Notes under the pieces: generated by a model | Databases searched by the model: none | What the model was told of the DNA's origin: nothing | Seen by the model: only the letters and a program-made list of their open reading frames with translations | Program-made: the position numbers and the translations under genes | Shown here: positions 1-52,329 of the stretch, piece after piece | Numbering within the stretch: position 1 is the stretch's first letter | Layout of the letters: every line of letters begins with the position of its first letter | NCBI GenBank assembly: GCA_950295325.1 | Contig: OX485807.1 | Location: 13,233,001-13,297,000, forward strand | DNA length: 64,000 bases | Reading direction: 5' to 3' | Source of the DNA: Polytrichum commune | Taxonomy: Eukaryota; Streptophyta; Polytrichopsida; Polytrichales; Polytrichaceae

Positions 1-2
1 TC

Positions 3-2321
3 ATTAAGTGCCGCGAAAATGGAGTAAGCCTAAATCTAGAGAAGTGTTTTTTCTGCGTTAATTCAGGGAGACTCTTAGGGCACGTGGTATGCAAAGAAGG
101 ATTGTTGGTGGATCCGAAGAAGGTGGAAGTTATCAAAGGATTACCTCCACCAACCACCGTACGAGGAATTCGGAGTTTTCTAGGCCAAGCTACATACCAT
201 CGGAAATTCATATGGATGTATGCTGAGATCACTCGGCCTTTGTACTTACTACTCAAGAAAGGAGAGAAGTACATTTGGACAAAATCTTGTCAAGAGGCCT
301 TCGAAGAAGTGAAGAAAATGTTAACAACTACACCCATTTTGGTAACTCCCAATTGGACCATGGAATTCCACGTACACTGCGATGCCTCGAACATCGCAAT
401 TGGAGCCGTTTTGGCTCAGAACATACACAGGGATAGAGATTCCCCAATTCATTACGCTAGTCGACTCTTAAACAGTGCGGAGAAGAACTATAGTACGACG
501 GAGCGTGAAGCCCTAGCAATGATCTACTCAGTGGGCAAATTCAGACACTATTTGCTAGCAAACCATTTCGTATTCTACGTGGACCATCAAGCCCTGCTAT
601 ACTTGGTCAATCGACCAGTGGTGTCCGGGCGAATCGCGAGATGGATGTTGTTACTTCAAGAGTACGATTTTGAAGTAGTTTATAAGCCTGGTAGGAGCCA
701 TGTAATGGCTGACCACCTATCAAGGATAGAAAGCGGAGAAGACCCCTCAGGGGTACAAGACCAGTTTCCGGACGCAAGTTTATTCATGGTTCACGTGCAA
801 CCATTCGAAGACTGGCGAGCACCTTTCATTGAGTACCTTACCCACGGAAGATTGTTGTCAGCTCTAGCTACCCCACGAGAACAAAACAAGATCAGGCAAC
901 TGAGTGAGCCCTTCGTCCTAGACGACGCAAAGCTCAAGCGAGTCAGTATCTCCGGCAAGATACATGAGTGTATAGCCGGGGACATCATTGAAGAAGTCAT
1001 AAGCGAAGCCCATGAGCAAGATGGGATACATTACAATCTAACTTCAACATGGCATTACATACTACGCACCCCATATTGGTGGCCTACTCGACGAAGAGAC
1101 GTACTGGAATACTGTCAAGAATGTCCGGTATGTAAGGTTGTTGACCAAGGAAACGAAACCGGGAATATTACCCCACAAGATTCAGAGGACGACGACGATC
1201 CACTCCCTGTACAACCTTTGGAAGCGCAAGAAGACATGACAGGAAAAGCAGAATCGGATTGGACAACACCATATGTCCAATACCTAACTTGTCTAACACA
1301 CGGAACCCCCTGGGTGAGTTCCCTACCCAAAGAAGAAAGAAGATTGGTAGTGTACCGAAGCAAATTTTTCATACTCATTGAAGGGGAGTTACATCGCATG
1401 TTTCATAACGGCATTACCAAGAAATGTATGCCTGGAAGATATGTGAGGAGTTACATCAAGACCCTCCATATACGAGAAAATCAACATCTTTCAGTAAATG
1501 CCACCAGGAAATTAGTTCTACAAGGGCCGTATTGGTGGCCAACTATCACGGAAGATGTCTCACTACTCATCACACTATGCATCGAGTGCGAAGAGCATGG
1601 AGAAGAGTTACACACAGAAGCAAGCTCTTCGGAACCGGGTAACGGGGCGGACATTATACCATACAAAGAAACTTTTAACGATTGGAGAACACCTCTAGTC
1701 GAATATCTGGCGCATGGAAGACTCAAAATGGACATGGAAACTCAAAGAGGGCAGCGGGAAACCATACGAGAGAGCGAAATTTTCACTTTGGAAAAGGGAA
1801 AACTTCGAAAACTGGAGAAGAATGGAATGGCTGAAATTTGCATCGCTGGTTACCAAATAAAGCATTGGATAGGGAAAATGCACGTACACCAGCAGAGACA
1901 CTTAGACGACCAACAAACTTGGCTTCGATGCTTGCAAGGGAATCGGTGGTGGCCCACGATGGGGCTGTGTGACATACAAATCTACATTATGTACGACTGC
2001 CCGTCTTGTCGAAGAAGATTTCGAGGCCCGCTCCATAACATAATTTGCGGGTCCGTCATCGTACAAACACCTGACAACAAGGATTGGAGGAGGTTGTTAA
2101 TAGAATACCTCACATACGGGTACTTGAAAGGACCCCACATCTCGAAGAATCAATACAAAAGGATAACTCGACAAAGCCAAAAATATTTCATTGAAGAAGG
2201 AAAACTAAAGAGGATATTCTCGGATGGAGACGTGAAGATATGTATTGCGGGACGGGAAATCAACAAATCCTGCAAGAATTACATGTTACGGAATCCGGGG
2301 AACATCTTAGCGAAGAGATAA
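3..2321 (+). CDS. Gypsy pol, part 1: RT end, RNase H, H2C2 modules 1-4
   Basis: The frame is open from base 3 and continues leftward, so no start is assigned. It begins in the RT thumb (FLGQATYHRKF-like connection). RNase H follows, with the acidic residues in HCDAS, TEREALA, YVDHQAL and MADHLSR contexts (roughly 370-730). From base 810 come four tandem modules of about 135-150 aa. Each starts with DW(R/T) and ends in H-x5/6-H, a WWPT core and C-x2-C; the fourth loses frame. The frame stops at 2319-2321, while the same module continues in the -1 frame in the next ORF. The break sits between the ICIAG motif and the histidine pair of module 4 (about 2255-2280). A one-base loss is the simplest reading, since I see no canonical slippery heptamer. 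Confidence 0.9.
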   Translation: MKCRENGVSLNLEKCFFCVNSGRLLGHVVCKEGLLVDPKKVEVIKGLPPPTTVRGIRSFLGQATYHRKFIWMYAEITRPLYLLLKKGEKYIWTKSCQEAFEEVKKMLTTTPILVTPNWTMEFHVHCDASNIAIGAVLAQNIHRDRDSPIHYASRLLNSAEKNYSTTEREALAMIYSVGKFRHYLLANHFVFYVDHQALLYLVNRPVVSGRIARWMLLLQEYDFEVVYKPGRSHVMADHLSRIESGEDPSGVQDQFPDASLFMVHVQPFEDWRAPFIEYLTHGRLLSALATPREQNKIRQLSEPFVLDDAKLKRVSISGKIHECIAGDIIEEVISEAHEQDGIHYNLTSTWHYILRTPYWWPTRRRDVLEYCQECPVCKVVDQGNETGNITPQDSEDDDDPLPVQPLEAQEDMTGKAESDWTTPYVQYLTCLTHGTPWVSSLPKEERRLVVYRSKFFILIEGELHRMFHNGITKKCMPGRYVRSYIKTLHIRENQHLSVNATRKLVLQGPYWWPTITEDVSLLITLCIECEEHGEELHTEASSSEPGNGADIIPYKETFNDWRTPLVEYLAHGRLKMDMETQRGQRETIRESEIFTLEKGKLRKLEKNGMAEICIAGYQIKHWIGKMHVHQQRHLDDQQTWLRCLQGNRWWPTMGLCDIQIYIMYDCPSCRRRFRGPLHNIICGSVIVQTPDNKDWRRLLIEYLTYGYLKGPHISKNQYKRITRQSQKYFIEEGKLKRIFSDGDVKICIAGREINKSCKNYMLRNPGNILAKR

Positions 2322-4020
2322 TGTGGCACCTAATCATGTTTGGGCCATATTGGTGGCCCACATGCGGAGCCGACATTAACAGCTTATGCCGTCGGAAATG
2401 TACGGTATGCAGCAACCAAGCAGAGTTTTCAAAAGACCCGAAGACACCATCACCTCTGGACCGGAAAGACCTACTAAGAGGGGTTGCTGCAGATTGGAGA
2501 CGTCCTTACATGGAGTACCTAACATGCAAGGAGATCTTCGACCAAACCCTACCACCAGAGGTAAAAAGGACGGTAACACAAAGCCAGAAGTACTTTGTGT
2601 TCAGCAACGGCACGTTACAACGGATACGCAAAGGAGGAAAAGGTAACCAAGTTTGTATCCCCGACACTCAAGTTCCCAGGTACCTAGCCAAGGTACATGG
2701 GGAAAGCGAACCCCACTTGGCTGCCATAGAAACATGGAAGGCCGTGGCCACAGGAGCGTACTGGTGGCCGACATGGGGAAATGACGTGTGCAACCATTTA
2801 AGATACTGCAAAACTTGCAGAGGAACGGAGACACCGAAGGAATGCCCCAGGGAAAATCAAAACTCATCTTCACCAAAACCAACACCTAAGCCAGATTGGA
2901 GACAACCAATCACACAACGACTAAAGAGCTTTGAGGAGTTAAACCACGTTGGTACACATGAAGAGTTGGGATTACTCAGCCTTAACACCGAGACGTATTT
3001 CATAGCCGAAGATGGGTTGAAATATCGATTACCAAATGGGGAAGTTAAGATGTGCGTGGCCAAAGAAGACGCCAAGGATTGGGTGAAGAGGATACATGAA
3101 TATCAAATACCGCATCTAACGAGAAAAGAAGTACTCGCACAAGTACACAAAGGCCCGTATTGGTGGCCCACCATTTCTTCAGATATAAACCACTTAATTG
3201 ACGAATGTAAACCATGTCAGATCACTGCAACGTCAGGCCTTAAAATCGAGAACTACGGGACTATCTTCCTCCAGAATCAGAAGACACATGATTGGAGAGA
3301 ACCAATCATTCAATACCTCAAAAACCCAATGGAACTAAGCGACTTCGCCTTTCATGAAGAGTTGGGTACCTTACGGACGGAATTACCTCATTACTTTCTA
3401 AAGAAAGGAAAGTTAAAGCGAAGTTTTGCAAATGGGCAAACGAGACTGTGCATCTCTCAAGAAAGAGGAATCGAATGGTTGACAACCATTCACAATCAAC
3501 GGTACCCTCATCTTTCAATGGATGAAATGATTTTACAAGTCACCCAAGGGCCTTATTGGTGGCCCACAATTCCTCCAGACATTGACCATCTATGCAAGAA
3601 GTGTAGAGTTTGTTGGCCCAATGAAACCCCGGAGCATGTTGTTGACTGCAAAACTGTCACGATCAAGGACAAAGAAGAACCGGACTGGAGAACATCTTTC
3701 ATCGATTACTTAACCCACGGGAGGCTGACCACGGAAGCCTCAAGCACGCAGCGACAACAAATCGCCATACGAAGTCGTCCATACATGCTAAACCACAACG
3801 GGACTCTGATAAAAGAAGGGCCCGATGGTATACGAAGGATATGCGTAGCTGGACCGATAACTACAGCCATTATCGCAGAAGCTCATGAAGGAATAGCTGG
3901 AGGGCACTTTTCAGCCAACATCACCTTACACAAGGTTTTAACTGCCTTGTATTGGTGGCCCTCCATGAAGAAAGATGTCCATCTTTATTGCACTCAATGT
4001 GATATCTGTCAAAGGGTTGG
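810..4020 (+). repeat. Eight tandem H2C2 zinc-binding modules inside pol
   Basis: DW(R/T) module starts lie at 810, 1257, 1680, 2082, 2492, 2894, 3290 and 3683. The (Y/R)WWP cores lie at 1074, 1530, 1944, 2348, 2759, 3158, 3554 and 3950. Spacing is about 393-456 nt. Every copy keeps the His pair, the WWP core and the closing C-x2-C. Each unit corresponds to the whole region that normally occurs once before a Gypsy integrase core: a DWR-x-P-x2-x-YL linker, a short strand region, then H2C2. The copies differ heavily in the linker, so the duplications are not recent. Module 8 is the one directly joined to the catalytic core and looks most like an ordinary integrase N-terminus. Confidence 0.92.
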
Positions 4021-5629
4021 CCCAAAAATCTCAACCAATCTCCAACCCTTACATCCCACAATGCCCACAGAGGTATTTCAGAAATGGGGTTTGGACTTCA
4101 TCGGACCGGTCAACCCGCCAGCTAAAGGTACCAAGAATCGGTACATTATCACGGCTACCGACTACACCACTAAATGGGTGGAAGCCAGAGCCTTAAAGGA
4201 TAACACGGCAAAATCCACAGCCAAATTCCTTTTTGAGGAAATTATTACAAAATTTGGTTGTCCATTGGAGTTCGTGAGCGACCAAGGAAGTCACTTTATC
4301 AATGACACTATCAAAGTGCTTACTCAAGAGTTCATGATTTTACATCGGAAGTCAACCACTTACTACCCACAAGCAAACGGGCAAGCAGAGAGTACCAACA
4401 AGGTAATTAAGATTGCCTTGACCAAAATGGTTAACGCCAATCGAACAGATTGGGACACCAAGTTACATGCAGCACTTTGGGCCTATAGGACAGCCTATAA
4501 GGTTACTACCAAGCACACTCCGTTCTCATTAGTGTTCGGGACGGAAGCCTTGTTACCTATGGCTTACCTTCACCCCGACGTCTATCAGAAACGGAATCAA
4601 GAGTTTCATCCCATACTCGAGAAGAGAATGGAACAGCTCAGAACTATGGATTTAACCAGACATGAAGCCGAAGAAAACATGACACATATGCAGCTATTAC
4701 GAAAGGAAAGACATGACAAACCTCGGGCGAAGAGACAATGTCAACATTGTGACCTTGGGATAACCAAGCCACCACGAAAGGAGGCTAAGAAACACGACAC
4801 TTTGAAAGAGGATCCTACTCGAGCTATGGAGAAAAGTCAAAACTTTCGAAGTAACGAAGATGGGGAGCAAAATACTACACCCAAAACACACTTTTATCCG
4901 GGCCAACGAATCTTATGGCACTTGCGCCATAAAATACCCGGGCCGGGCAAGTTCAAAATACGATGGGCAGGACCTTACCTAATTCAACAAGTCTATGATA
5001 ATGGATCAGTGGATGTTACCACCCTACAAGGAGACAGCTTGGGACGAGTCAACATGAACAAGTTAAAACCATACCAAGAGCCGGAAACTACGCAAGCCTA
5101 TGCCTTACAAATTTTAGCATGCCACCTTTTGGAAACGGAAATACGAGCAAAACAAAATCCTTTATACAAAGGGACTGGTACTACACCAATTCCCATCACC
5201 ACATCTTCTCAATCAAATAAGGAAACCATTTCACATACTGGTTCCACCTCTTACCAAAGTCAAGAAACCTTAGATGCTGAAGATTTGGAAATGCATAGGG
5301 TCATGCTAGAAGTATACCACATACATCCCTCAAAACAAGAGAATGTCCATCCAAAAGATACCTTAAACCTCCTAAGGTATGACCAAATGGATGAAAAAGA
5401 AACCAACCTACATACCATACAATTACAACAAGAGAGAGATACCTTTAAACTCATAAGGTATGACCAAAAGGATGAAAAAGAAACCAACCTACAATCCGTA
5501 TCCCAATGGGAACTACCACCAAGCTCGGGAGAAAATTCAGGAACCACAACACCTATGAGGAATACAACCCATGCCTACCCCACCTTACCTGGCTTGGAGC
5601 CAACGGGGGTGGAGCCAACTCACATATAA
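2240..5629 (+). CDS. Gypsy pol, part 2: H2C2 modules 4-8 and integrase
   Basis: This 1129-codon frame overlaps part 1 by 82 bases and continues pol in the -1 frame. The listed start is only the first ATG, not a real translation start. It holds the rest of module 4, modules 5-8, then the integrase catalytic core: D in GLDFIGP, D in VSDQGSHF and E in GQAESTNK, the D,D,E triad of Gypsy integrases. After the core comes a lysine/arginine-rich insertion containing a CQHC pair, then a GPY/F-like region (IRWAGPYLI, about 4955-5090). The C-terminal tail is hydrophilic and carries a duplicated RYDQ-x-DEKETNL block (about 5373-5493). No chromodomain is visible. The stop is TAA at 5627-5629. Confidence 0.9.
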   Translation: MYCGTGNQQILQELHVTESGEHLSEEIMWHLIMFGPYWWPTCGADINSLCRRKCTVCSNQAEFSKDPKTPSPLDRKDLLRGVAADWRRPYMEYLTCKEIFDQTLPPEVKRTVTQSQKYFVFSNGTLQRIRKGGKGNQVCIPDTQVPRYLAKVHGESEPHLAAIETWKAVATGAYWWPTWGNDVCNHLRYCKTCRGTETPKECPRENQNSSSPKPTPKPDWRQPITQRLKSFEELNHVGTHEELGLLSLNTETYFIAEDGLKYRLPNGEVKMCVAKEDAKDWVKRIHEYQIPHLTRKEVLAQVHKGPYWWPTISSDINHLIDECKPCQITATSGLKIENYGTIFLQNQKTHDWREPIIQYLKNPMELSDFAFHEELGTLRTELPHYFLKKGKLKRSFANGQTRLCISQERGIEWLTTIHNQRYPHLSMDEMILQVTQGPYWWPTIPPDIDHLCKKCRVCWPNETPEHVVDCKTVTIKDKEEPDWRTSFIDYLTHGRLTTEASSTQRQQIAIRSRPYMLNHNGTLIKEGPDGIRRICVAGPITTAIIAEAHEGIAGGHFSANITLHKVLTALYWWPSMKKDVHLYCTQCDICQRVGPKISTNLQPLHPTMPTEVFQKWGLDFIGPVNPPAKGTKNRYIITATDYTTKWVEARALKDNTAKSTAKFLFEEIITKFGCPLEFVSDQGSHFINDTIKVLTQEFMILHRKSTTYYPQANGQAESTNKVIKIALTKMVNANRTDWDTKLHAALWAYRTAYKVTTKHTPFSLVFGTEALLPMAYLHPDVYQKRNQEFHPILEKRMEQLRTMDLTRHEAEENMTHMQLLRKERHDKPRAKRQCQHCDLGITKPPRKEAKKHDTLKEDPTRAMEKSQNFRSNEDGEQNTTPKTHFYPGQRILWHLRHKIPGPGKFKIRWAGPYLIQQVYDNGSVDVTTLQGDSLGRVNMNKLKPYQEPETTQAYALQILACHLLETEIRAKQNPLYKGTGTTPIPITTSSQSNKETISHTGSTSYQSQETLDAEDLEMHRVMLEVYHIHPSKQENVHPKDTLNLLRYDQMDEKETNLHTIQLQQERDTFKLIRYDQKDEKETNLQSVSQWELPPSSGENSGTTTPMRNTTHAYPTLPGLEPTGVEPTHI

Positions 5630-6639: not shown

Positions 6640-7860
6640 ATGCAAGAAGAGACTGACCGACTGAAGAAGGAAATTCAGATCCTCACTCACACAAATCAAG
6701 AACAACTGACTACAATCCAGGACTTGGAAAATGCTAACTCGCAGCAGTTCAGAACCCATGAAACAGAGTTGGCGGCAATGCGAGCACAGATCCGAAATCT
6801 CACCGAAGCATCTGGGGCTCACAACCTGCACGCAGATCAACCAACAGACGCATTCCCCAACCGACAACACCGAGAGAGGATCGAGATTACCAGTTTGCAA
6901 GCAGAAAATCGGGAGCTCAGGGCGGCCCTGGCAGCCAAGACGCCAATCTCGGCCACCAAAACAGACTCCGCCTTCGGCACACGTCTGCACCGACCCATTA
7001 ATCGTGCGGAGAGGCAGGCTCTGACGGAAGGAGCAGCAGAACAGCTGCTTAGCGACCTGCAACAAGAACTCCACACCATTAAACACGAAAAGGAAGAACT
7101 CCAGCATCAACTTCAAAAGGGGCAGATCGCAATTGGGGCCTTGGGTTTACCTCAAACTTGCACTCACCCTAAATCTGAAGTTTTCCGAAGGCTGCTGAAC
7201 CACACTGAGCCTTTCAAATCAATTATGCAAGGTTATCACGCACATGCGGCGATCACTTTACTTACCAGCAGTTTACCCATACTCAGAAAAGGTACTTCAC
7301 TCACTCAAGACCAATTCGGCGACATATGGGCGCATGCTGATTCCAAGGCAAAAGATACCCTGGCTTTCATGTGGGCATTAGGCGATATCAAGTTGCCATT
7401 AGGTTGCATTGAAGTAGTGACTGGGTCCCCTCCATTTTTTATCAGAAGATACATATTGCGGAGTATCGCATCCATGGGACAGCATCAGGCTAACCAGATC
7501 AGGGGTTACCACATTGACCATGCATTACCCTCACTGCGGCCTTATACACACAGCCAGAAAATCGAGATTGCAAAATTACAACACCAACATAAAGAAATTT
7601 TTCAACAAGCAATCAACGCTTTGCGGGGCGAGGACACGGCCATATGTTTTGAAGCAGCCCGACGCCACCAGTGGCTCCTGGAACATTACCCCACTCACTC
7701 CACCCAGGTGACTTTGATTCAACTCAAGGATTATGTTAATCAGACATTGGAGGAACAACAAATCACGGTTACCACCGGACGTTTCGGAACCATCAACCAT
7801 GGGACTATTCTTCGAGTCGGGTTACCAGATCGGTCTGCTCCCACTCATCACGAAATGTAA
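6640..7860 (+). CDS. Accessory ORF in env position, coiled-coil protein, 406 aa
   Basis: The product is not recognised. It is a sense-strand ORF between pol and the polypurine tract, the place of env in retroviruses and Athila-type elements. Residues 1-60 and about 75-165 are rich in E, Q, K and L with heptad-like spacing (MQEETDRLKKEIQIL; LQAENRELRAAL), suggesting two coiled-coil stretches. Residues about 180-400 look globular, with many H, Q and L and a motif pair GYHAHAAITLL and GYHIDHALPSL. I see no signal peptide, transmembrane helix or furin-like site, so it does not look like an envelope glycoprotein. The ATG at 6640 is preferred because it is the first after the acceptor-like CTTTCAG. 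The intact frame in a copy whose pol is broken suggests recent constraint or recent insertion. Confidence 0.7.
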   Translation: MQEETDRLKKEIQILTHTNQEQLTTIQDLENANSQQFRTHETELAAMRAQIRNLTEASGAHNLHADQPTDAFPNRQHRERIEITSLQAENRELRAALAAKTPISATKTDSAFGTRLHRPINRAERQALTEGAAEQLLSDLQQELHTIKHEKEELQHQLQKGQIAIGALGLPQTCTHPKSEVFRRLLNHTEPFKSIMQGYHAHAAITLLTSSLPILRKGTSLTQDQFGDIWAHADSKAKDTLAFMWALGDIKLPLGCIEVVTGSPPFFIRRYILRSIASMGQHQANQIRGYHIDHALPSLRPYTHSQKIEIAKLQHQHKEIFQQAINALRGEDTAICFEAARRHQWLLEHYPTHSTQVTLIQLKDYVNQTLEEQQITVTTGRFGTINHGTILRVGLPDRSAPTHHEM

Positions 7861-7885: not shown

Positions 7886-7901
7886 AGGGGAAGGGGTAAA
7901 A
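7886..7901 (+). other. Polypurine tract of the plus-strand element
   Basis: AGGGGAAGGGGTAAAA is a purine-rich run broken only by one T, directly before TGTG at 7902. A polypurine tract next to a TG is the expected primer site for plus-strand DNA synthesis and fixes the start of the 3' LTR. Confidence 0.85.
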
Positions 7902-8696: not shown

Positions 8697-8790
8697 AGGC
8701 CAAACTTAAGGCACCTAATACACTTCATTTGAACACGCAAACTCTACATGAGTGTCGGAGCCTCTAGCACTCTCTCAAGCTAGTACATTT

Positions 8791-9105
8791 AGCCGAGGTT
8801 TTCGTGCCCTAACTCGGAGGGCAATCGAGCTAGCATCGCAATTAGCCGAGGCATTCGAGCCCTAACTCGGAGGGCATTGGAATACTAATACGATTAGCCG
8901 AGGCATTCGAGCCCTAACTCGGAGGGCATTGGAATATTAATGCGAGTAGCCGAGGCATACTTAAGCCCTAACTCGGAGGGCATTGGAGACAATCATGCAC
9001 GAAGATAGCTAGCCGAGGCAAATACATACCCTAACTCGGAGGGCATTCTAAAGTGTTAAAATATTTAGCCGAGGTTCTCAAATCCTAACTCGGAGGATAT
9101 TAGCA
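8791..9105 (+). repeat. Six tandem units with pseudoknot potential in the LTR leader
   Basis: Units start at 8791, 8844, 8896, 8948, 9011 and 9067 (period 52-63 bp). Each contains, in order, CCGAG, a spacer of about 8-12 nt, GCCCT, AA, CTCGG, AGGGC. CCGAG can pair with CTCGG, and GCCCT with AGGGC; the interleaved order is that of an H-type pseudoknot. In unit 6 the second stem is ATCCT/AGGAT, two compensatory changes. Unit 5 has ACCCT/AGGGC, losing one terminal pair. Spacers between units vary more than the stems. Lying downstream of the TATA box, the array should be transcribed. Confidence 0.8.
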
Positions 9106-10201: not shown

Positions 10202-12892
10202 TCAGCAGCGGGTTACACCGTCTAAGTTTGCTGAGGGTTTGAAGGTGACCTCGACATTCATCACATTCTCTAGAATCTCATCTACCCTTGCCTGGGTAGT
10301 CTTTGGGGCGCCTCCTTTCTCGGGGCTCCGTTCTTTAGGCTTCCTTGCCTCTTCTTCTTCTGGGTACCAAGGTGCGAACTCCTCTGGCGTGGGTAGAGCT
10401 TCGCCATGTTCCTCCTGTATGTCTTTGATAGTTTTACTCACCTCCCGGTGGACTTCCATATCAGCTTTCCATTCCTTGTTGTTGGCTCCTATCGGCCTTT
10501 CATTTTTCTCCTTATCATCAACGTGTTCATCTTGCTCGAACACCTCCTCTTTGTCTTCATCGGGGTGTGCGTCCGGCTCGCGCACAACATCTCTCTCTTC
10601 ATCAGAGTTCTCATCTCTTTGTTGGTGGTCTTCCTGCTCCTCAGAGCTGCCACTGCTCGAATCGTCGTCATCATCACTATCGTCACTTTCGCTATCTTCC
10701 TTGCCTCCCTCGGCCGCAGCCCGTTGGGCTCTTGTCATCACACACACAGCAGGGGACACCACGTTGGCTCCCACGGCTAGCTTAGCATTCCTGAATCCAC
10801 TCAACTCCTGTTGGTGTTTGATAAAGTGCGGACAGTCCGTCTTCCGGTGTCCCTTTTGATGACAATAAAAACACTCGTCGGGGTTGCCATCTCGCTGAGG
10901 TACGCCAGTGTACCCAGTTCTCGGCGCTGCCTTGGTGTTGGTACTGTCCATCAAGCTTCGGTTGTATTCATGATTGATAGGTCCTCTGGGACCTCCTCGG
11001 TAGGGGTATCCATCTTCCCTCCGGTAATCTTGGCTCTTGTAGGGGTAGTAGCCTTCCCTCCTGAAGTCATCTCTGTAGTTGTCGTTGGGCCTAAAATAGG
11101 GCCGTTCATCTCTGCGATATTCATTTCCCCGGTAGGGGCCTCCCGCCTCCCGCCGGTAATCGCCTTCCCTGAATGGGGACCTTTCATCTCTTATGAATTC
11201 TATCCTTGGTTCAAACCGAACCCTTCTGTCATTCGTTTCTCGCCTAGGAGTGATCGCTCCTGGCCTTCGATTGGATTGGGGTTGTATTTGATTTACCCCA
11301 TATCTTCTATCCCGGGGTCTCCGAGATTCATGCCGTTCGTAAACACACTCGCTAGTGTTGTGGGTTAAGCTGTTACAATTCGTACATTGTTTCATTTGAC
11401 ACTCTTGCACGTAGTGCCCTTCATTTCGGCATCGCCGACAAATTATGCCTGTTCTGAATTTCCGGCTTCCCAAAGCCAGTCCTTCTATCTCTTCTCTGAG
11501 AGTCTTGATGTCATCTTTGGTTGAGTTATTTCTTCTACTCTTTGTCTTCTTTTTCTTCTTTCGCCGTTCTTCCTCTGAGTCATCACTTGACTCCTCACTG
11601 TCACTCTCATCGAGGAACCTCCCTTTCCTCATCTGTCCTAATTCCAACTTCCGTGCCGATGCTTTTGCTTCATCCAAGTCATCGGTCGGCATTAAATCAA
11701 TGTGCTTAGCGTATTCCTTTTTCAACCCATTAAGGAACCATGCTTTCTTGAATTGATTACTAGGTTGAGGGTGAATCTTTGATGATTCCACCATAACCCT
11801 TTCATAAAACTCTTCGACGGTCTCGTCTTTCTTCTGTTTGAGGGAGCCTAGGCTTTCAATGACTTCTCCCTCTGATTTCTTTGATCTGAATCTCATAAGG
11901 AAGGCAGTTCCTAAACTTGGCCAGTCCGGAAAATGGTTTGGGCCAAATTGGGAGTACCATTCCAAGGCTCGTTTCTTTAAGGTAACAGGGAATAGTTGTA
12001 ATTTGATCGCGTCTGTGTCTTCTTGATTTGCGAGACACACGTTGTTGAACTCTTGCATATACGTATCGGGATCCGTCTTACCCTTGTAGGTTGGTAAGGG
12101 AACCTTCGTTCTTCGGGGTTGTGCGGCCATGTTGACTGGGTTGGGTAAGTTGCTTCCAACACCAGGTGGGTTGTTGCTCTTGGCTGGTGGTGGGCTGACT
12201 CCGGTGTTAATTCCAAGGTTTTGGAATTGCTTAAGTTTCTCTTCAAACTTCCTCCGTAGGTCGTCAAACTCTTCTTGACTGATGGGTCTTTTTACTCCTT
12301 GGTCCGTGTTATCTTGTGTGCTTTCTCCGGAGAAGCCGGAGTCTTCAAAGCTAAATTGTTCTTCAAAATTTCTTTTCAATTTCTCCCAACTCCTTGGGTT
12401 GAAAAGATTTTCCTCAGCCGTGTTTCCTTGATGGGTGTTGTCCTGCGCTTTATCTACTGGGGTATGTGTACCCGTGTTTTTACCTGTACCTTTCGTTCTC
12501 AACACATAGGTTCCAAGAGGGGTGCCTATTATCAGATCATCCTCATCTTCCTCGTTTTCTCCCTGATTCAAGTTCTCTTCATCCAAGTCTTCATGTCCTT
12601 TGCTTGTCTCACCATTATCTCCTCCTTCACTTTGACTTCTATGGTGGCTGGGCTTAGGGGTGTGGGAACCTACTGCCGGTGGTTCAGAAGCGTATCGGCT
12701 CTCTTCACTTCCTGTAGTTCGTTGTCTTGTACGCCTAGCGTACCTCTCTTCTCTTTCTCTTTTGAGTTGTTCAGTCCGCCTTATGCGGTCCTCTCTGGAA
12801 TGCATGCGCTCCACATGCTTCTTCTCTGCCTCCTGTTCTCTAGGAGTTGGTGATGTACTTCTCGTACTAGATGTATCCTCATGATCAACCAT
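10202..12892 (-). CDS. gag: Gag polyprotein with three CCHC zinc knuckles
   Basis: The 896-codon frame has a charged N-terminal third and a retrotransposon gag capsid-like domain (KKRALEWYSQF, EEFYERV, FLNGLKKEY contexts, roughly residues 260-420). Two adjacent CCHC knuckles start near residue 485 (CRRCRNEGHYVQEC, CTNCNSLTHNTSEC) and a third lies near 674 (CFYCHQKGHRKTDC). An R/Y-rich repeat region lies between them. After MTRAQRAAA comes a very acidic D/E stretch. The last 18 codons and stop are read antisense from the inserted LTR (10202-10256), so the natural C-terminus and any gag-pol junction are lost here. The ATG at 12890-12892 is the first in the open frame. Confidence 0.92.
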   Translation of the reverse strand: MVDHEDTSSTRSTSPTPREQEAEKKHVERMHSREDRIRRTEQLKREREERYARRTRQRTTGSEESRYASEPPAVGSHTPKPSHHRSQSEGGDNGETSKGHEDLDEENLNQGENEEDEDDLIIGTPLGTYVLRTKGTGKNTGTHTPVDKAQDNTHQGNTAEENLFNPRSWEKLKRNFEEQFSFEDSGFSGESTQDNTDQGVKRPISQEEFDDLRRKFEEKLKQFQNLGINTGVSPPPAKSNNPPGVGSNLPNPVNMAAQPRRTKVPLPTYKGKTDPDTYMQEFNNVCLANQEDTDAIKLQLFPVTLKKRALEWYSQFGPNHFPDWPSLGTAFLMRFRSKKSEGEVIESLGSLKQKKDETVEEFYERVMVESSKIHPQPSNQFKKAWFLNGLKKEYAKHIDLMPTDDLDEAKASARKLELGQMRKGRFLDESDSEESSDDSEEERRKKKKKTKSRRNNSTKDDIKTLREEIEGLALGSRKFRTGIICRRCRNEGHYVQECQMKQCTNCNSLTHNTSECVYERHESRRPRDRRYGVNQIQPQSNRRPGAITPRRETNDRRVRFEPRIEFIRDERSPFREGDYRREAGGPYRGNEYRRDERPYFRPNDNYRDDFRREGYYPYKSQDYRREDGYPYRGGPRGPINHEYNRSLMDSTNTKAAPRTGYTGVPQRDGNPDECFYCHQKGHRKTDCPHFIKHQQELSGFRNAKLAVGANVVSPAVCVMTRAQRAAAEGGKEDSESDDSDDDDDSSSGSSEEQEDHQQRDENSDEERDVVREPDAHPDEDKEEVFEQDEHVDDKEKNERPIGANNKEWKADMEVHREVSKTIKDIQEEHGEALPTPEEFAPWYPEEEEARKPKERSPEKGGAPKTTQARVDEILENVMNVEVTFKPSANLDGVTRC

Positions 12893-13007
12893 GTACGCTA
12901 CTGAGAGTGTTTCGGGGTCATGGTCTTGGCCGGCTCTCTCAGCTCTGACGCCTCAATGCACCCGTACTTCACATGTTTGCCTATGGATGATTACTTGGAC
13001 ACTTGGT

Positions 13008-13646
13008 TTAAGTTCTTGTTTCTTGTTCCTGCTCCTGCCCCAAATTCAAGTTCCCCACACTACCATGCAAACCACCATACAGAGGTAAGAATATCTTTCT
13101 AACATACAAATCGTACAACAAACCTTCTTGCTTGTAATGGTAACCTCGATGTCGCGTTGCTCCTAACACATAGGCGCTAATTCCTTCTCTTCCGTCATTC
13201 CACACCTTAGAGAAAATTACTGCCTGCAGCTCCTCTGGTAACTCAGCAATGTTTCTCTCAAATTGTGACCGGTACGTGAATCCTATTTCTCTTTCTTGGT
13301 GTAATTGCCAGACCTTGTCTTCATACATCTTCTGCATATCCCACATGAGATCGTGGAATCTCCTGGTTCCTTCCCATTTCTTCAAGGTTGTTCGACTGGT
13401 ATCATACTTTGGATAATCCCATGGCCACTTACCCAAAGCCAAGACTTCTTGTTGCTTTGAGTTCTCTTCTTCTCCTCCTTCGCTTCCCTGCACGTAGAAT
13501 CCTCGGAGATTAAACTGTTCGAGTCTCCGTTGCACTGCTCTCTCTATACGATCTTGCTTCCGTGGTCCAAATGTTTCTTCCCATTTGCGTTTCTCATTCA
13601 TCTCCTGTTGGAGTCTTCCACAATATAGGTAGTACATGTTCTCCAT
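13008..13646 (-). CDS. ORF ahead of gag, 212 aa, unknown function
   Basis: The product is not recognised. It lies on the element's sense strand between the primer-binding site and gag, 115 bp before the gag ATG. It is charged, with basic/acidic helices at the N-terminus (KRKWEETFGPRKQDRIERAV), a central WPWDYPKYD motif and a tyrosine-rich C-terminal region (RGYHYKQEGLLYDLYVRK). No membrane segment, zinc finger or signal peptide is visible. Ogre elements also carry an ORF of unknown function before gag, so position suggests an equivalent, but no sequence kinship can be claimed. The intact frame suggests it is a real element gene. Confidence 0.7.
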   Translation of the reverse strand: MENMYYLYCGRLQQEMNEKRKWEETFGPRKQDRIERAVQRRLEQFNLRGFYVQGSEGGEEENSKQQEVLALGKWPWDYPKYDTSRTTLKKWEGTRRFHDLMWDMQKMYEDKVWQLHQEREIGFTYRSQFERNIAELPEELQAVIFSKVWNDGREGISAYVLGATRHRGYHYKQEGLLYDLYVRKIFLPLYGGLHGSVGNLNLGQEQEQETRT

Positions 13647-13734
13647 TGACGCCTGCCATCCAACTTACTCCCAAATATTGTATGTTGTAAATTTTATCTT
13701 CTAATCTAGGTAAGTGTAACGTCCATGTGGCGAA

Positions 13735-13752
13735 TCCCCAGCATGGTCGCCA
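13735..13752 (-). other. tRNA primer-binding site of the minus-strand element
   Basis: On the minus strand TGGCGACCATGCTGGGGA starts three bases after the LTR end. It is complementary to a tRNA 3' end ...GGUCGCCA. TGG next to an LTR end is the standard primer-binding layout. An arginine tRNA is my best guess, unverified. Confidence 0.85.
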
Positions 13753-13755
13753 AAA

Positions 13756-16050
13756 TGTCGAGGTCACCTTCAAACCCTCAGCAAACTTAGACGGTGTAAC
13801 CCGCTGCTGACCGGTTTACATGGACACTACACTTATCTAAATTAACTTTTGAAGGTGTTTCCTCTTGGATAAATCTTTAAGGAGAAAGTAGCCTAAGCTT
13901 TTAAGCTTATGTTCCCCGAAATCCTAATGTCGAGGTTAAGTGTTGTGAATATAAGGAGTGTTTTCGCAATCAATGTAATGGTATCAAAACATTCTTCAAT
14001 TTCATTTCTAATTCTAAATCCTCAATCAAAGTTCACAATCACATTACTTTGAGTGTTTTTATTAACAATCCATTGCAATGCCTTTAAGGTGAAAGTTGGC
14101 TACTGGATGGTCTTCAAAGTCTTTTATTCTTGAATGATGGTTTGAAGATCTTCTTAATGTCTTCATTCTTCTAAAGTTCCCTTTTGTCTGGTTTTCCTTT
14201 GTATTCTCTACTCATGAGAGTTTAGTTCTTCATTCTTGAATATCTCTAAATTCCTAGGAAGGATCTTCTCTAATCTTCCTATTCTCTTGAGTGCTTCGGT
14301 CTTGGATTCCTTACGCAATCTTCTTTGTCTTCACGATGAGCTTCGGATTTTGTCAATCTCTTAGCCTCTTCACTTTTGATATCTTGACATCTCCTTAGAC
14401 CCAAAAGGTATCTTAGATCTTGGTTAGAAAGTTCGTTTAAACCTTTAGTCCTCAAAGGGCTTCAAACTTGCGGTCTTGGTCTCGGGCTTGCGGTCCTCCA
14501 GTCCCATGGCCCTCAGTCTCCAAATCTTGAAACAAGGCCTTTTGTGTCTTCAAGTCTTTATTGTAGCCTCTGATTTGAAAACATCTCGGAAAGTCCTTCA
14601 AGTTCTCGAGTCTCCTCGAACACTGATACCACGGTCCCACAGTCACACGGGCCCTCAGTCGTACGGTCCTTTTATGGCCTCTCGGCTAAGACTAGGTGCT
14701 CTTGAGAAAGTCTTCAAGTTCTCGTTCCCAAGGTCTCGCGGTCTCTCAGCACCTCGGGCCCTCAATCTTCAAGGTACACCCAAAAGGGGTCTTCATATCT
14801 TCGAGTCTTCGGATTCGTTAAGAATCAGTCTTCAAGTCTCGGAAACTCGCCATCCGGTTCCGCGGTCCTCCAGTCGCGGTCTCCAGTCCGCGGGCCTTCA
14901 ATGTCGTGGGCTCTCAGCTCCAAATTCGGTCTTCAAACTCGAAAAGATCTTCGATTCCTCGGGTAAAATTTCGAAGCTCCGATTGTCGTCAAATCGCTCC
15001 CGATAATGCTCCAAATAGGTCTTCGTTAAAACGCTCCCGATAATGCTCCTCTTGACGCTCACGTTGGATTGTTGAAATGAATAATGAAGTGCTATAGGGG
15101 TCCGTAGTGCCCCTTTATATAGGCTTTGAAATCTTAAAATTGGTTGAACTAGCGGTTAGGTATGGCCTCCTAATGCCAAATGTCTAATTAGGCTAATTTT
15201 AGTCTGAATTAAGGCTGCAGTCTAAATTTAGGTCTGCCGGATCTATTTACAGAACCCACACGTGCTAAATATAGATGTTCGTGAGAAATGGATTGGTTGC
15301 AATTCCTTCTATTTCCTAGATGTGCCTAGGTGTGTTCGGTTACCATTCATGAGTCAATCATCCAAGATCTCATCCTTTCATTGCTTAGATGGTTAAAGCG
15401 GTTAATGTCATCCAAGGGATGGAAACCCCTTGGCATTGTCTTTCATCCACACGCGTTAGTAAGTACGTGTCCACTCATTGTTGGTTAACTACTAAGTGGT
15501 CACTTCCTATAGTCACTAAGCGCTTGTCTCTCATCCAAAAAGTGACTACACCATCACTAATCTCTAACCTAGCCTACTAATGTCTTCATCCGTTCCCCAA
15601 CGGTCTTCAATCGTTCCCGCCGGCTAGCTCCGTTCCCAACGGGTGTGCTCCCGTTCCCGCCGGCTCAACCTCGTTCCCATCGGTTTAGGCTTGTTCCCGC
15701 CGGCCTAATCATCCGTTCTCGTTGTCTAAGCTCGTTCCCCAACGGCTCTTAGTCCGTCCACGTGGCCGACTCCCACGCGATATCCCTTCTTCCGTTGGCC
15801 CAGCTGTCCGGTTCCCAACCCGGACCCGTTCTCGTCCTGGCCCCCTACAAATACCCGGCCGTGATACCCACATGTCATTTTCTGCCCGGGCTTCTTCCCC
15901 GCTCCCGGTCCTCCAGCTGTCTGCTCCCTTCGCCGCTCGTCACCGTGTCACGACCTCGGACCTCGCCTTGAGAGCTTCCCCGACGCTCTCTCTCCTTTTC
16001 TCTCAGCACTCTGCATTTGGCGATGCCTTTGATGGATCATCCAGTTGTGT
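13756..16050 (-). repeat. 5' LTR of the minus-strand element (outer end approximate)
   Basis: On the minus strand it ends ...CCTCGACA at 13756, directly before the primer site. Reverse-complement homology to the plus-strand LTR is seen in the U3 (15150-15250 against 8560-8680), at the TATA box and at 13880-13945 against 9815-9900. The terminal 69 bases are identical. R/U5 (about 14400-15000) carries its own repeated GACTGGAGGACCGCG-like motifs instead of the pseudoknot units. I could not see a clean TG start, so 16050 rests on the expected length. Confidence 0.75.
15113..15121 (-). promoter_or_regulatory. TATA box of the minus-strand LTR
   Basis: TATATAAAG on the minus strand lies in a segment homologous to the TATA region of the plus-strand LTR. 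It drives leftward transcription toward the 212-aa ORF and gag. Confidence 0.7.
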
Positions 16051-31314: not shown

Positions 31315-34300
31315 TCAGATGATGGTTTTCCCAAGTATGAAAAGTGTTGACGAAAACGCAACTCCAAATATCATGTAGAGGAATCCTCGATCCAGCACAA
31401 ATCCATACAAGGATACTCCAGCACGCGCATGCTGAAGATACGTAACTGCATCAATCCAAAAACACATGTTAAGTTAACCTACAAAGTTTTCTACGTAATA
31501 AAGGAACTCAGGAAGCAAAATACCTAGAATAGGATCCCATGGGCTTTTGCTCCGTTTGGTCATTTGTTTGGGGAGCCCCAAAAACATCTAGATATTAGAT
31601 AGCGCCAACCAGTGAGAGAAAGGGGGAATGAAGGGTATGGAAGCTAGGGATACAGCAAGGAGAATCGGGGTAGAGACCTATTGGGTCATGTGTGCATACC
31701 TTGCACAATCATGACCATTGAATCTAAGTTGGATATGTAGGCAATGTTGTATATCTTGTGTTCAAACTAGGAGATGCATGTATTTGGTTTCCTTCACTGC
31801 TTACATTTTCCTTGAAACACATGGTCATAATCTTGGAACTTACTAGCACATACTTGAACATAATGTATATGAGGACAAGGGAAGACCTTAGAATTGCTAT
31901 AACCCTACAACCCTATACCCTAACATTCAAGGCATGCATAAGGTAGGTAGGAAGAGAAGAGGAGAGAATTACAAAGTTGAGGAGAGGGAGAGAAGGCATA
32001 TTTCGCTTGTTTTTGTCAAAATACATGTTTACCGGGTTCACTCTTAGAAGCGAAGCTGAGACTGAACGGAATCTCAAACTCACTACAACACTCTATCAAA
32101 TTTTTCTCAAAGATCGATTCAAAATGTCTGAAAGCCAATCGATCCGCATTAGCAACAAGAAAGTCCCCTTCCTGAGGATTTGTGTGAAAGAAATCTGATG
32201 TACAAAAGTTCCGTGGTATGTATGCTTTGACGTTCCTTGGGATGTTACTACGCAACGCTCACAGTGCCAGATTCCACCAACCTTACGCACCTATCAATTT
32301 CGTACATAATCGATCCTAAACATGACCACCTAATTTTATAAGTTCCGTGTGACATGTTATCATTAGTTAAGAGACAGTGTTATCAAATCCTACATGGCAC
32401 ATTGAAAATCAACACACAAAGGTTCCCGGAACCGACCGAAACTTTTGCAATAACCCACCCTTGAAGGACATTAATATAAGAATAAGAAATTACCCAATGC
32501 CTGCCGTTTCTGGTAAGCTTCCAAGTCATGAGCCAGCTCCTCCTCCAATGAGTTCCACTCACGACCAGACGCTTCCAGATCCTCCGAAGATGAGCCTCGG
32601 TTCAAGTGAGGGTGAGCAGGACCATAAGTGAGTCCACTTCCTTGCGAGGAGCGGTCGTTCAAAGCGCTCGGACTACAGGTTGCGAGAGCGTGCCATTTGC
32701 TCACGATTGCCACAATTCGTTGTGCCTTGTGTGTGATCTTCGCAGCTCCCTTGAGACAGAGCACCAGGCCTGTCAGCTGCACCAAAGAGCAGACCTGCAT
32801 ACGTATATACAATTTCTCTTACGAGGTTACTTGTCTTGGTCGAATAACATCCAGATTGTTGGAGCCTCCAATGTGCACATTCACACGAAGAATTTGATGA
32901 AAGAACATAAGAAAGTTGCAAATATGACAAGTGACAATACGGTTACTGCAAATAACCATTTGGGTGTGCAGAAGGTGTGTATGGGGGAACCCCAGAGAGG
33001 TGCCAGGCTTGGAGCCAAGGGCATGATGGGTGATGGGGGATAATGAGGGGCTTATGAACATGGGCATGGGCATACATGCATATGATGGCCCATGGGCACG
33101 CACATGCATGGGGCATATGGGCATGGGCATTGGACATATGGTTGCATGGGGGTTGGGTTGAGCCAGGATATTAAATCATATGCATGAGTGCTATAGGCAG
33201 GGACCGCATGGCTAGTTATGCTACAGAAGGTCACTCAATCTAGGAAATGTTCCTGTAGTTCTTTAGGATAGAATATTAGTTGCGAACACAATGAAAATGA
33301 GTGACAATACGGCAGTGTGATAAATCATAGTGGCTGCGTTGCCAATCCCTGGGGTTTAACTAAGTGTTAAATCTCACACTTTGGATTAAGTTTCCGTCGG
33401 CTGGTTAAAATCTGTCAAGGTTTGAGAGCGAAAAACTGCAGCATCAGAAATTCCAGGTATAACACAGTAAACGGTATGAAGCAGAGGGTGAAGGAATGAT
33501 CACCGCTAAGTCTCCGGCCCGGAAGAAGTTGATTGTTTTGGCAAACAAGAGGATCTGGAAGAGCGAAGTGAGCTGGCTGAAGACGATGGAAAATAGGGCC
33601 AACACCATGAAGAAACGGAAGCGATGACTGATGGTCGTGAGTTGGCTGCGGATCTTCATGTGCTCTTTGAGGATGATAGACACCTCGGAGGTGACCTCCA
33701 GCAGCTTGTTGTAGCCCTCCAGTCGCAACACTTGGAGTGAGCACATGAGCCGAAAGAGGACACACATGAAGAGGAAGACGCTCGTTCTATAGAACCACGA
33801 CAACGCCGCCGCTGTGCACAGCACCATGTTGATCTTTGGGATTTCCGCAACAGAGGGGATCGACACGGTGACGTATGCGTACCACCAGCCTCGGTGCAGC
33901 ACTTCCACCACAAATGTTGGCAATAGGATCCATCCTAGTAGAGAGAAGGCGCTCTGTCACCACATCAAATATGTGGAAAGGGAACAGATTATTGAGAAGC
34001 CAATCTGATGTCAAATATGGATTAGCTAACCGTGAAAGACACCACTAATTTTTTTTTTAAACCTAATTGAATTCATATGGGTCACTACAATCACTACCAT
34101 CACTACAATCAAGAATTGATCAGTGAGCAGACTCCTGATTAACATTCGAAGCAAGAGAACAGATTATCAAAAAGCACATGAAAGACACCACTGCTTTCAA
34201 AAACCTGATTGAATTTGTGGTGGCCACTATTATCAGCCATGATCACTATAATCACTACTATCAACAACAATTGATCAGTGAGGAGGCTCCTCATGGGACA

Positions 34301-34915
34301 TTCGAATCAACCAAGAGTGTAAATGTAATGTGCGGTTCATTTGGCGAGTGCAATTTTTCTTTACAAAACCATTTAGAGATTCCAGGTCTAGGGATTTGAA
34401 GAACTCACACGTAGCTCCGATTCATAACCTTGTTGGACTTGAATGGGCTCCTTCACAATCTTGTCCAAGAGAAGAGTCCTTCGAAGCCCAAACGTGTGCA
34501 AGATGTGGGAGAGGCAGAGGAACGAGATGGCGGCAAGAAGGGACTCGGAGATTTGCACCAACTTCTCGAACGGATGTTGGTGCCCTTCGTCGCAGTCTTT
34601 GCAGTAAACATAGGTGTAATTGAACATGGGTACCATAAATGTGAACACAAGGAAGAGTATTCTGGACCAAATGACTTTAGGAATGGTCGACTGGTCAAGG
34701 CCAAGCCAGGATAAACCGGAGCGAAATTGCCTGAGCTCGTCCCTCGGGTTCGACATCATCCTCTTGTACATGATCTTGGCTCTGGCCCTTTTGTCATCCT
34801 TCACAGGATCCTCCACATCCTCCACTTCATCCTCTGGGCTCTCTGCAAACTGCACTTTCGTCTCTCTTCGAATCAGAGGCGCTTCCACGTCTTGTTCTTG
34901 CGTATCGCCATTCAT
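31315..34915 (-). CDS. DUF3537 family multi-pass membrane protein, 4 exons
   Basis: Exons on the minus strand: 34409-34915, 33504-33953, 32494-32794, 31315-31445. All have GT..AG borders and joining phases, giving 462 aa and a TGA at 31315-31317. Family markers of the plant DUF3537 proteins are present: SGLSWLGLDQS, FRSG, CLSH..LRRTLLLDK, ALSWFYRTSVFL, CVLFRLMCSLQVLRL, KITHKAQ, and a C-terminal YLQHARAGVSLYGFVLDR. About seven hydrophobic segments fit an integral membrane protein. The N-terminal 90 residues are acidic and probably cytosolic. Some databases label the family extracellular ligand-gated ion channel; I know of no firm evidence and assign no activity. An acceptor-like TTTTAATTTCAG at about 34952 (minus) suggests a 5' UTR intron. 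Confidence 0.85.
33056..33140. repeat. CATGGG-rich low-complexity tract in intron 2
   Basis: Repeated CATGGGCAT and ATGCATG words lie within intron 2 of the DUF3537 gene. It also creates spurious histidine/proline-rich frames. Confidence 0.6.
33965..34315. repeat. Tandem duplication in intron 1 of the DUF3537 gene
   Basis: Two diverged copies (about 33975-34150 and 34155-34315) share AACAGATTAT, GAAAGACACCACT, CCTGATTGAATT-like and AATTGATCAGTGAG blocks in order. Confidence 0.7.
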
Positions 34916-51880: not shown

Positions 51881-52329
51881 GTAGTTTCCATTAAAATGAG
51901 AGTATGTTAAGCTGGGAAATCGACTCATTTAGGTCGACTCAACCTAAATTAACAACATATTGTCCTCATTTAAGTCGACTCAACCTAAATTGACTAACAT
52001 ATAATCCTCATTTAGGTCGACTCAACCTAAATTGACTAACATAATTGTCCTCATTTAGGTCAACTCAACCTAAATTGACAACATAATGTCCTCATTTAGG
52101 TCGACCCAACCTAAATTGACAAAATATTGTCCTCATTTAGGTCGACTCAACCTAAATTGACGAACATATTGTCCTCATTTAGGTCGACTCAACTTAAATT
52201 GACTAACATAATTGTCCTCATTTAGGTCGACTCAACCTAAATTGACAACATAATGTCCTCATTTAGGTCGACTCAACCTAAATGAGTCAATTTCCCAACT
52301 TAACATACTCTCATTTTAATGGAAACTAC
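51881..52329. mobile_element. Fold-back element holding a nine-unit hairpin array
   Basis: The ends, GTAGTTTCCATTAAAATGAG and its exact complement, extend inward to about 60 bp of inverted repeat. Between them are about nine units of 41-45 bp, each with ATTTAGGT-CGACTCA-ACCTAAAT, an 8-bp stem that can form a hairpin. Unit spacers (TTGAC(T)AACATA(A)T) are also conserved. No ORF is present. Confidence 0.85.

What the first reader, a model, noticed from the sequence alone, without database searches (positions are those of the whole stretch)
810..4020. Eight tandem H2C2 modules between RNase H and integrase core in one Gypsy pol
Seen: eight units of about 130-150 aa, each with a DW(R/T) start, a WWP core, an H-x5/6-H pair and C-x2-C, at near-constant spacing. 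Known: Ty3/Gypsy integrases carry a single H2C2 zinc-binding region. Units are strongly diverged from each other but all keep the four metal ligands, which argues for selection rather than a recent unstable duplication. I do not know of a described element with such an array. Possible roles (inference): multivalent binding to LTR ends or host chromatin, or a structural role in the pre-integration complex.
Basis: partly seen in the sequence, partly recalled or inferred. Interest (0 to 1): 0.92.

Follow-up and report, generated by a model that had tools for sequence, protein, structure and literature searches.

The report
Integrase with eight tandem N-terminal regions
A family of retrotransposons in what is probably a plant genome carries eight diverged, selection-maintained copies of the integrase's zinc-binding N-terminal region in a row, where most related elements carry one and a sister family carries five; what the extra copies do is not known.

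Summary
Between RNase H and the integrase core of a Ty3/Gypsy pol lie eight units of 116-149 aa, each a whole integrase N-terminal region (extension plus HHCC zinc domain). It is a family trait: in the window's own genome 28 of 30 fetched copies show eight modules, and a sister family shows five in 13 of 13 fetched. Of 12 database relatives, the ten with two or more modules have them in the same consecutive order. More distant elements have one, or two (a clade with the fern Adiantum). Array size is thus discrete: 1, 2, 5, 8. Across 23 copies dN/dS is 0.11-0.23 in modules 1-7, 0.05 in module 8, 0.02 in the core; linkers 3-4 to 6-7 drift (0.5-1.0). Only module 8 keeps the residues conserved in single-module integrases; modules 1-7 keep the fold and lose the rest. 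Corrections: this copy has a frame break in module 4; module 6 (in part of the copies) and module 3 of the five-module family lost zinc ligands yet remain under purifying selection. My paper searches found no description. Best reading: folded beads on a string that make integrase a multivalent binder; what they bind is inferred, not shown.

The parts
276..665 (+). RNase H of pol, directly upstream of the array
   Evidence: PF17919 and PF17917, residues 92-221 of frame 3-2321
810..1256 (+). module 1 with its linker (extension + HHCC domain); pairs with module 1 of the five-module family
   Evidence: PF17921 40.4 bits; DW, H-x5-H, WWP, C-x2-C; tree; dN/dS 0.11
1257..1679 (+). module 2 with its linker
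   Evidence: PF17921 28.9 bits; dN/dS 0.14
1680..2081 (+). module 3 with its linker
   Evidence: no Pfam match; own profile, left out, 98.3 bits; dN/dS 0.16
2082..2491 (+). module 4 with its linker; the reading frame changes inside it (the two frames overlap at 2240-2321), so this copy is broken here
   Evidence: N half 51.2 bits, C half 54.2 bits with own profile; frames; PF17921 24.7 bits in the C half
2492..2893 (+). module 5 with its linker
   Evidence: PF17921 27.9 bits; dN/dS 0.19
2894..3289 (+). module 6 with its linker; zinc ligands lost in part of the other copies
   Evidence: PF17921 29.0 bits; ligands in 13 of 23 copies, dN/dS 0.23
3290..3682 (+). module 7 with its linker; sister of module 6
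   Evidence: PF17921 22.0 bits, below cut-off; own profile, left out, 111.7 bits; tree
3683..4030 (+). module 8, next to the core; the canonical unit
   Evidence: PF17921 58.6 bits; keeps 26 of 32 columns conserved in single-module relatives; dN/dS 0.05
4067..4390 (+). integrase catalytic core; D 4160-4162, D 4280-4282, E 4388-4390, 35 residues between the last two
   Evidence: PF00665; spacing
4916..5134 (+). C-terminal SH3-like part of integrase (label by eye and from the predicted strands, no Pfam match)
   Evidence: strands in the model; 93 and 95% identical in two relatives
6640..7860 (+). extra frame of 406 aa between pol and the presumed 3' LTR; probably of the same element, role unknown
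   Evidence: weak coiled-coil type Pfam matches only
7886..7896 (+). polypurine-tract-like AGGGGAAGGGG, presumed start of the 3' LTR shortly after it
   Evidence: a repeat boundary lies at 7902

Best explanation
SHOWN: the pol of this element carries eight N-terminal regions of integrase (extension plus HHCC domain) in a row. The array arose by old internal duplication, is fixed at eight in its family and at five in a sister family, and is kept by purifying selection module by module while several linkers drift. Only module 8, next to the core, keeps the residues conserved in single-module integrases. INFERRED: module 8 does the ordinary work of the N-terminal region in the intasome. Modules 1-7 are folded beads on flexible linkers, freed from that work and specialised as binding units, so that integrase (or a processed piece of Pol) is a multivalent scaffold. 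The likeliest role is to hold the integrase-cDNA complex together, doing covalently what some retroviruses do with additional integrase subunits; gripping a host partner is the close second. Since two kinds of module lost zinc ligands and stayed under selection, the folded surface seems to matter more than zinc itself.
For: Fixed numbers and order: 28 of 30 and 13 of 13 fetched loci, 46 of 47 module pieces of relatives match best the module expected from their order, spacing classes 157-188, 283-286, 718-721 and 1,120 aa. Selection: dN/dS 0.11-0.23 in m1-m7 against 0.50-1.02 in linkers 3-4 to 6-7. Folded unit: profile match to PFV integrase 30-102 and Ty3 integrase; same order of two helices, three strands, three helices in modules 6, 7 and 8 of the model. 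Division of labour: w8 keeps 26 of 32 conserved columns, each of w1, w2, w3, w5, w6, w7 keeps 13; the G, F, D, Q, R columns lost upstream are also lost in the upstream module of two-module elements and kept in their core-proximal one. Zinc-free but selected modules. Precedent: in Ty3 the extension domain stabilises contact with the LTRs (PMC8632968, passages); the MVV intasome uses sixteen subunits for multivalent interactions (PMC9065133, abstract and outline).
Against: No binding, processing or oligomer state was measured. It is not known whether the array stays on integrase or is cut off. Modules differ in charge (-2.8 to +6.0), so they need not bind the same thing. dN/dS rests on non-independent pairs, high dS and poorly aligned linkers; linkers 1-2 and 2-3 (0.16 and 0.27) are not drifting. 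The model is weak (mean pLDDT 59.6; module 5 at 33-59; modules 1-3 failed at mean 30.4), and the fold comparison mostly matched the core.
Confidence: 0.6

Rival explanations
1. Targeting: the upstream modules read host factors or chromatin and steer integration.
For: The Ty3 extension domain is reported to interact with TFIIIC (PMC8632968, passage). In ZBTB11 an integrase-like HHCC domain serves a cellular function and each of its four ligands is needed (PMC5384227, passages). Modules of different charge and rate would fit several partners.
Against: No partner and no insertion-site preference was looked at; copies lie on all seven large contigs, which says nothing either way.
Confidence: 0.22
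2. Separate Pol product: the protease frees the array as its own protein that packages or condenses nucleic acid in the particle.
For: Long, poorly conserved linkers; some modules are basic (m5 +6.0, m3 +4.2, m2 +3.2).
Against: m1 and m6 are acidic (-2.8 and -2.7); no cleavage site was tested; module 8 and the core stay directly joined as in other integrases.
Confidence: 0.1
3. Ratchet: duplications that were tolerated became hard to lose because deletion would leave a misfolded piece; the extra modules only have to fold and do no harm.
For: Purifying selection on folding alone would also give low dN/dS with drifting linkers; zinc loss in some modules is tolerated.
Against: Exact, different numbers in two families of one genome with no intermediate among the loci that could be read in full; a wholly useless module should be removable by unequal recombination within frame.
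Confidence: 0.07
4. Artefact or lone rearrangement of this copy.
For: The locus lies in a large, nearly perfect inverted repeat that might be an assembly fold-back, and the frame is broken in module 4.
Against: The same array stands in 28 of 30 fetched loci on seven contigs and in pieces in 12 proteins of other records.
Confidence: 0.01

Closest known systems
Ty3 integrase (PDB 7q5b; PMC8632968, passages seen)
   Same: Extension domain, HHCC domain, core, SH3-like end; profile of the modules matches it at E 0.006
   Different: One N-terminal region, not eight; Ty3 has a chromodomain, for which Pfam gave no match here
Prototype foamy virus integrase (PDB 3l2q and others)
   Same: Module profile matches residues 30-102 at E 1.6e-7; module 8 plus core match 38-286 at 1.9e-27
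   Different: One N-terminal region; an animal retrovirus
Single-module Gypsy elements of land plants (Riccia, Adiantum, Pinus, Rosa and others; P0021-P0135)
   Same: Module 8 plus core 30-56% identical in the listed best hits; one canonical module
   Different: 157-188 aa between RNase H and core where both marks were found
Two-module Gypsy elements found here (P0022, P0023, P0024, P0030, P0050, P0063 of Adiantum nelumboides, P0078)
   Same: Tandem N-terminal regions with a canonical core-proximal one
   Different: Two modules that group with each other in the trees, on a separate branch of the core tree
Five-module family of the same genome (L033-L045)
   Same: Sister family; first, fourth and last modules correspond to m1, m6/m7 and m8
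   Different: Five modules in 13 of 13 fetched loci; third module without zinc site in the three copies read
ZBTB11, GIN1, NYNRIN (PMC5384227, passages)
   Same: Integrase-like HHCC domain used apart from integration (ZBTB11)
   Different: Single domain in a host protein, no array

Membership tests
Ty3/Gypsy LTR retrotransposon | Pol order protease, RT, RNase H, integrase | tested here: met
   Protease-like DGGSG and RT motifs upstream in L001 6317-7999 by eye; RNase H, H2C2, rve by Pfam
Ty3/Gypsy LTR retrotransposon | DDE integrase core, D-D-35-E | tested here: met
   35 residues between second D and E; PF00665
Ty3/Gypsy LTR retrotransposon | Two LTRs flanking the element | tested here: inconclusive
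   Purine tract and a TATA-like site at 8689 suggest the 3' LTR; the 5' end of this copy is lost in an inverted repeat
Integrase_H2C2 domain (PF17921) | Match above the curated cut-off | tested here: inconclusive
   Met for modules 1, 2, 5, 6, 8; below the cut-off for 4 (C half) and 7; not listed for 3; leave-one-out profile finds all seven unbroken ones
Integrase N-terminal region of the PFV/Ty3 type (extension + HHCC) | Sequence relation over extension and HHCC domain | tested here: met
   Profile of seven modules against PDB sequences: PFV 30-102 E 1.6e-7, Ty3 1072-1146 E 0.006
Integrase N-terminal region of the PFV/Ty3 type (extension + HHCC) | Zinc bound by the four ligands | not testable with these tools
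   Ligands present in all eight window modules; absent in some m6 and in f3 of three copies read; binding needs a bench test
Chromovirus | Chromodomain at the integrase C-terminus | tested here: inconclusive
   No chromodomain among Pfam matches of frame 2240-5629 at E up to 10; a diverged one could be missed
Tat/Ogre lineage | Additional archaeal-type RNase H (feature named in PMC6317226, passage) | tested here: inconclusive
   No second RNase H among Pfam matches of the two frames; pol upstream of the window was not scanned

The most novel reading that the evidence does not exclude
A class of retroelement integrases in which the N-terminal region was amplified into arrays of family-specific fixed size (2, 5, 8). 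The core-proximal copy keeps the intasome role, and the upstream copies, some without a zinc site, became a covalent scaffold that stands in for extra integrase subunits or reads host factors: another evolutionary route to a multivalent intasome than adding protomers.
Probability: 0.4. Interest if true: 0.9.

Novelty: new variant of a known kind. Interest (0 to 1): 0.82.

Why it matters
The N-terminal region of integrase is treated as one domain per protein. Here evolution has run a dosage series: 1, 2, 5 and 8 copies in related elements, with five and eight side by side in one genome. That makes it testable what this region does besides supporting catalysis, why intasomes of different viruses need different numbers of subunits, and whether the fold still works without zinc. 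Annotation pipelines that expect one H2C2 domain per pol may split or misname such elements, and Pfam alone under-calls three of the eight units.

Tried and rejected
Chance, artefact and lone rearrangement: rejected. Separate amplification of the middle modules in the five- and eight-module families: suspected from pairwise scores, but the tree pairs f1 with m1 (99/89) and f4 with m6/m7 (99/97) and rejects f2+f3+f4 as one clade (p-AU 0.018), so their ancestor already had several modules. Not settled: whether the two-module duplication is independent (A and B group together, but all upstream modules as one clade is not firmly rejected, p-AU 0.062); m8+f5 as one clade (not in the best tree, not rejected, p 0.376); m2-m7 as one clade (test did not finish). 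In the core tree the two-module label needs 4 changes, because five Adiantum rows inside that clade are labelled one-module; several of those are gene models that start inside a module or carry part of module A, so their labels are unsure.

Selection from the second copy at this locus: no use, it is identical to the window over 1-4521. Viral contigs: 5 stretches matched a pattern, none encodes a relative. Structure of modules 1-3: failed, mean pLDDT 30.4. Fold comparison of the other model mostly matched the core, so modules 5-7 are barely tested by fold. Per-module permutation tests of ligand conservation on the few protein relatives: p 0.02 to 0.09 for m2, m3, m4 (C half), m5, m7 and 0.50, 0.35, 0.21 for m1, m6, m8; pooled m1-m7 0.95 of ligand cells kept, reached by 0 of 20,000 permutations. 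Module counts in other elements cover only the 141 proteins shown; one search had 1,888 matches and listed 120. Two listed proteins with two modules far apart (P0029, P0094) are not tandem and were left out of the two-module group.

Papers: no tandem H2C2 array seen in the listings (open-licence PMC; listings only). Passages only: PMC8632968, PMC6317226, PMC11963269, PMC5384227. Abstract and outline: PMC9065133.
Full report
WHAT IS THERE. The window opens inside a Ty3/Gypsy pol. Frame 3-2321 (+) carries the RT tail, RNase H and the first modules; frame 2240-5629 (+) carries the rest and the rve core. Between RNase H and core lie eight units that start at 810, 1257, 1680, 2082, 2492, 2894, 3290 and 3683. 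The distance from the end of RNase H to the core is 1,120 aa. In 58 database proteins with both marks it is 157-188 aa in 52, 283-286 aa in 4, and 60 and 114 aa in 2; in three five-module loci it is 718-721 aa (a fourth had no mark). The frame breaks inside module 4, so this copy cannot make the array as one chain by ordinary reading. The 23 copies used for codon analysis have module 4 in one frame.

WHAT A MODULE IS. Each unit is the whole N-terminal region of an integrase: about 60 aa starting DW, then the HHCC domain with its WWP core. A profile of the seven unbroken modules finds PFV integrase 30-102 (E 1.6e-7) and Ty3 integrase (E 0.006) among PDB sequences. Pfam under-calls three of the eight. 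The seven modules are 22-43% identical to each other and share 14 invariant columns that include the four ligands. An AlphaFold2 model of modules 5-8 plus core and C-terminal part (mean pLDDT 59.6, pTM 0.27) shows the same order of two helices, three strands and three helices in modules 6, 7 and 8, whose HHCC halves stand at about 57-85; module 5 is poor (33-59). The model of modules 1-3 failed (mean 30.4).

IT IS A FAMILY TRAIT. Database: 12 proteins at 60-84% identity, eleven on ENA contigs and one from JGI, hosts not named. Of 47 module pieces in them, 46 match best the window module that their order predicts; the one exception has a higher single score to module 1 than to either half of the broken module 4. 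In the ten proteins with two or more modules the order is always consecutive. Own genome (407.8 Mb, 64 contigs, unnamed): a search with modules 4-8 plus core gave 91 matching stretches from 55 scored candidates, so counts are lower bounds. Of the 30 loci it returned, 28 show eight modules. These 30 include the window itself (L003) and its inverse copy (L004), where the script counted the two frames of module 4 twice, L011 and L015 with a module split over two frames, and L030 with a partial first module; L022 and L023 look like near-duplicates. L028 shows six and L029 five within the 1,500 bases upstream. A second family, 60-76% identical over the matched stretch, gave 15 places; I fetched 13, and 13 of 13 show five modules. 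Several matches lie in open frames of more than 3,000 aa, so a long Pol is not a rare accident.

SELECTION. In 23 eight-module copies with all modules whole (7 of 30 dropped), mean dN/dS for pairs with dS 0.05-1.2 is 0.11, 0.14, 0.16, 0.13, 0.19, 0.23, 0.14 for m1-m7, 0.05 for m8 and 0.02 for the core. For pairs with dS 0.02-0.4 it is 0.15, 0.15, 0.18, 0.16, 0.26, 0.32, 0.18, 0.10 and 0.05. Linkers (first range / second range): 1-2 0.16/0.12, 2-3 0.27/0.19, 3-4 0.50/0.96, 4-5 0.67/0.58, 5-6 1.02/1.51, 6-7 0.77/0.60 (14 and 2 pairs), 7-8 one pair only. Five-module family, 12 of 13 copies: 0.19, 0.13, 0.19, 0.21, 0.09, core 0.05; linkers 1-2 0.24, 2-3 0.44, the others not measurable (all). Pairs are not independent, dS is often high and linkers align poorly, so I trust the contrast more than the figures. 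In protein relatives the same pattern appears: RNase H 90%, core 95%, m8 89%, m1 84%, m2-m7 70-77%, linkers 30-63% identical on average.

ZINC LIGANDS. In the 23 copies the ligand columns of m1, m2, m7 and m8 are kept in 23 of 23, those of m3, m4 and m5 in at least 21 of 23 (which His or Cys column is the ligand is ambiguous in places). Module 6 keeps both His in 13 of 23, the first Cys in 19 and the second in 13; the protein relatives P0002 and P0005 show a like loss. The third module of the five-module family has no C-x2-C in the three copies read. Both kinds remain under purifying selection (0.23 and 0.19). So the fold appears worth keeping without zinc.

HISTORY. In the module trees m8 and f5 lie next to the single modules of other elements, m1 pairs with f1 (99/89) and f4 with m6/m7 (99/97), and f2+f3+f4 as one clade is rejected (p-AU 0.018). 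The ancestor of the two families therefore already had several modules, with the same first and last types. The core tree makes the eight-module family one clade (100), away from the two-module clade that includes Adiantum. That the two-module duplication is a separate event is favoured by the trees, not proved (p-AU 0.062).

DIVISION OF LABOUR. Among 76 single-module relatives 32 columns are at least 75% conserved. w8 keeps 26 of them; w1, w2, w3, w5, w6 and w7 keep 13 each (the broken module 4 was not used). Columns kept everywhere include the ligands, W, P, D, two Leu and the extra Cys. Lost in most upstream modules but kept in m8 and in module B of two-module elements are five: G and F around the second His, and D, Q, R around the last Cys; the upstream module A loses the same ones. 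Cells kept: A 101 of 192, B 136 of 192, w1-w7 78 of 192, w8 26 of 32; overlap of columns kept in A and in w1-w7, Fisher p 0.008.

MECHANISM. Shown: an ordered, fixed, selected array with several drifting linkers and a canonical last unit. Inferred: beads on a string that give integrase extra binding sites. I put a covalent scaffold for the integrase-cDNA complex first, because the duplicated unit contains the part that in Ty3 stabilises contact with the LTRs (PMC8632968, passage) and because the MVV intasome shows that many copies of integrase serve multivalent binding (PMC9065133, abstract and outline). Host-factor reading is second, with the reported Ty3-TFIIIC contact and the HHCC domain of ZBTB11 (PMC5384227, passages) as precedents. 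Nothing here measures binding.

NOVELTY. Seven paper searches showed no tandem H2C2 array in their listings; the library is open-licence PMC only. I call it a new variant of a known kind: a Gypsy integrase by the other tests made, with a domain architecture I could not find described.

THE LOCUS. Upstream of the window lies a second copy in inverse orientation: L001 1-679 is the exact inverse of window 1-679, and L002 5261-10000 is the inverse of window 680-5419 at 98.3%, with its 80 differences all at or beyond 4522. It shares the array and the frame break. The gag frame at 10202-12892 (-) lies in a stretch (10257-13824) 98.5% identical to the gag stretch beside that inverse copy, so it probably belongs to this family.

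Noticed in passing
window 1-5419 with L001 1-8000 and L002 5261-10000: Large, nearly perfect inverted repeat: a second copy of pol with the whole array stands upstream in inverse orientation, identical over window 1-4521. Real inverted duplication or assembly fold-back not decided.
   Followed up: partly
window 10202-12892 (-): Gag frame (PF03732, zinc knuckle) after the presumed LTR, on the other strand; 98.5% identical to the gag beside the inverse pol copy in L001, so probably this family's gag.
   Followed up: partly
window 6640-7860 (+): Extra 406-aa frame, probably coiled coil at its start, between pol and the purine tract; no clear Pfam family.
   Followed up: partly
L033-L045 (own genome): Sister family with exactly five modules; its third module has lost C-x2-C in the three copies read but has dN/dS 0.19.
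   Followed up: yes
window modules 1-3 and 5-8, Cys at column 54 of alignment A3: A fifth invariant Cys before the HHCC pair in all seven unbroken modules, also in 69 of 76 single-module relatives; role unknown.
   Followed up: no
window 33444-34915 (-): Exon-like frames of a DUF3537 (PF12056) gene.
   Followed up: no
window 8789-8987: Array of 3.8 copies of a 52-base unit inside the presumed 3' LTR or just after it.
   Followed up: no
window 51924-52283 and 62878-63520: Tandem arrays with units of about 41 and 219 bases; the first also matches itself in inverse orientation.
   Followed up: no
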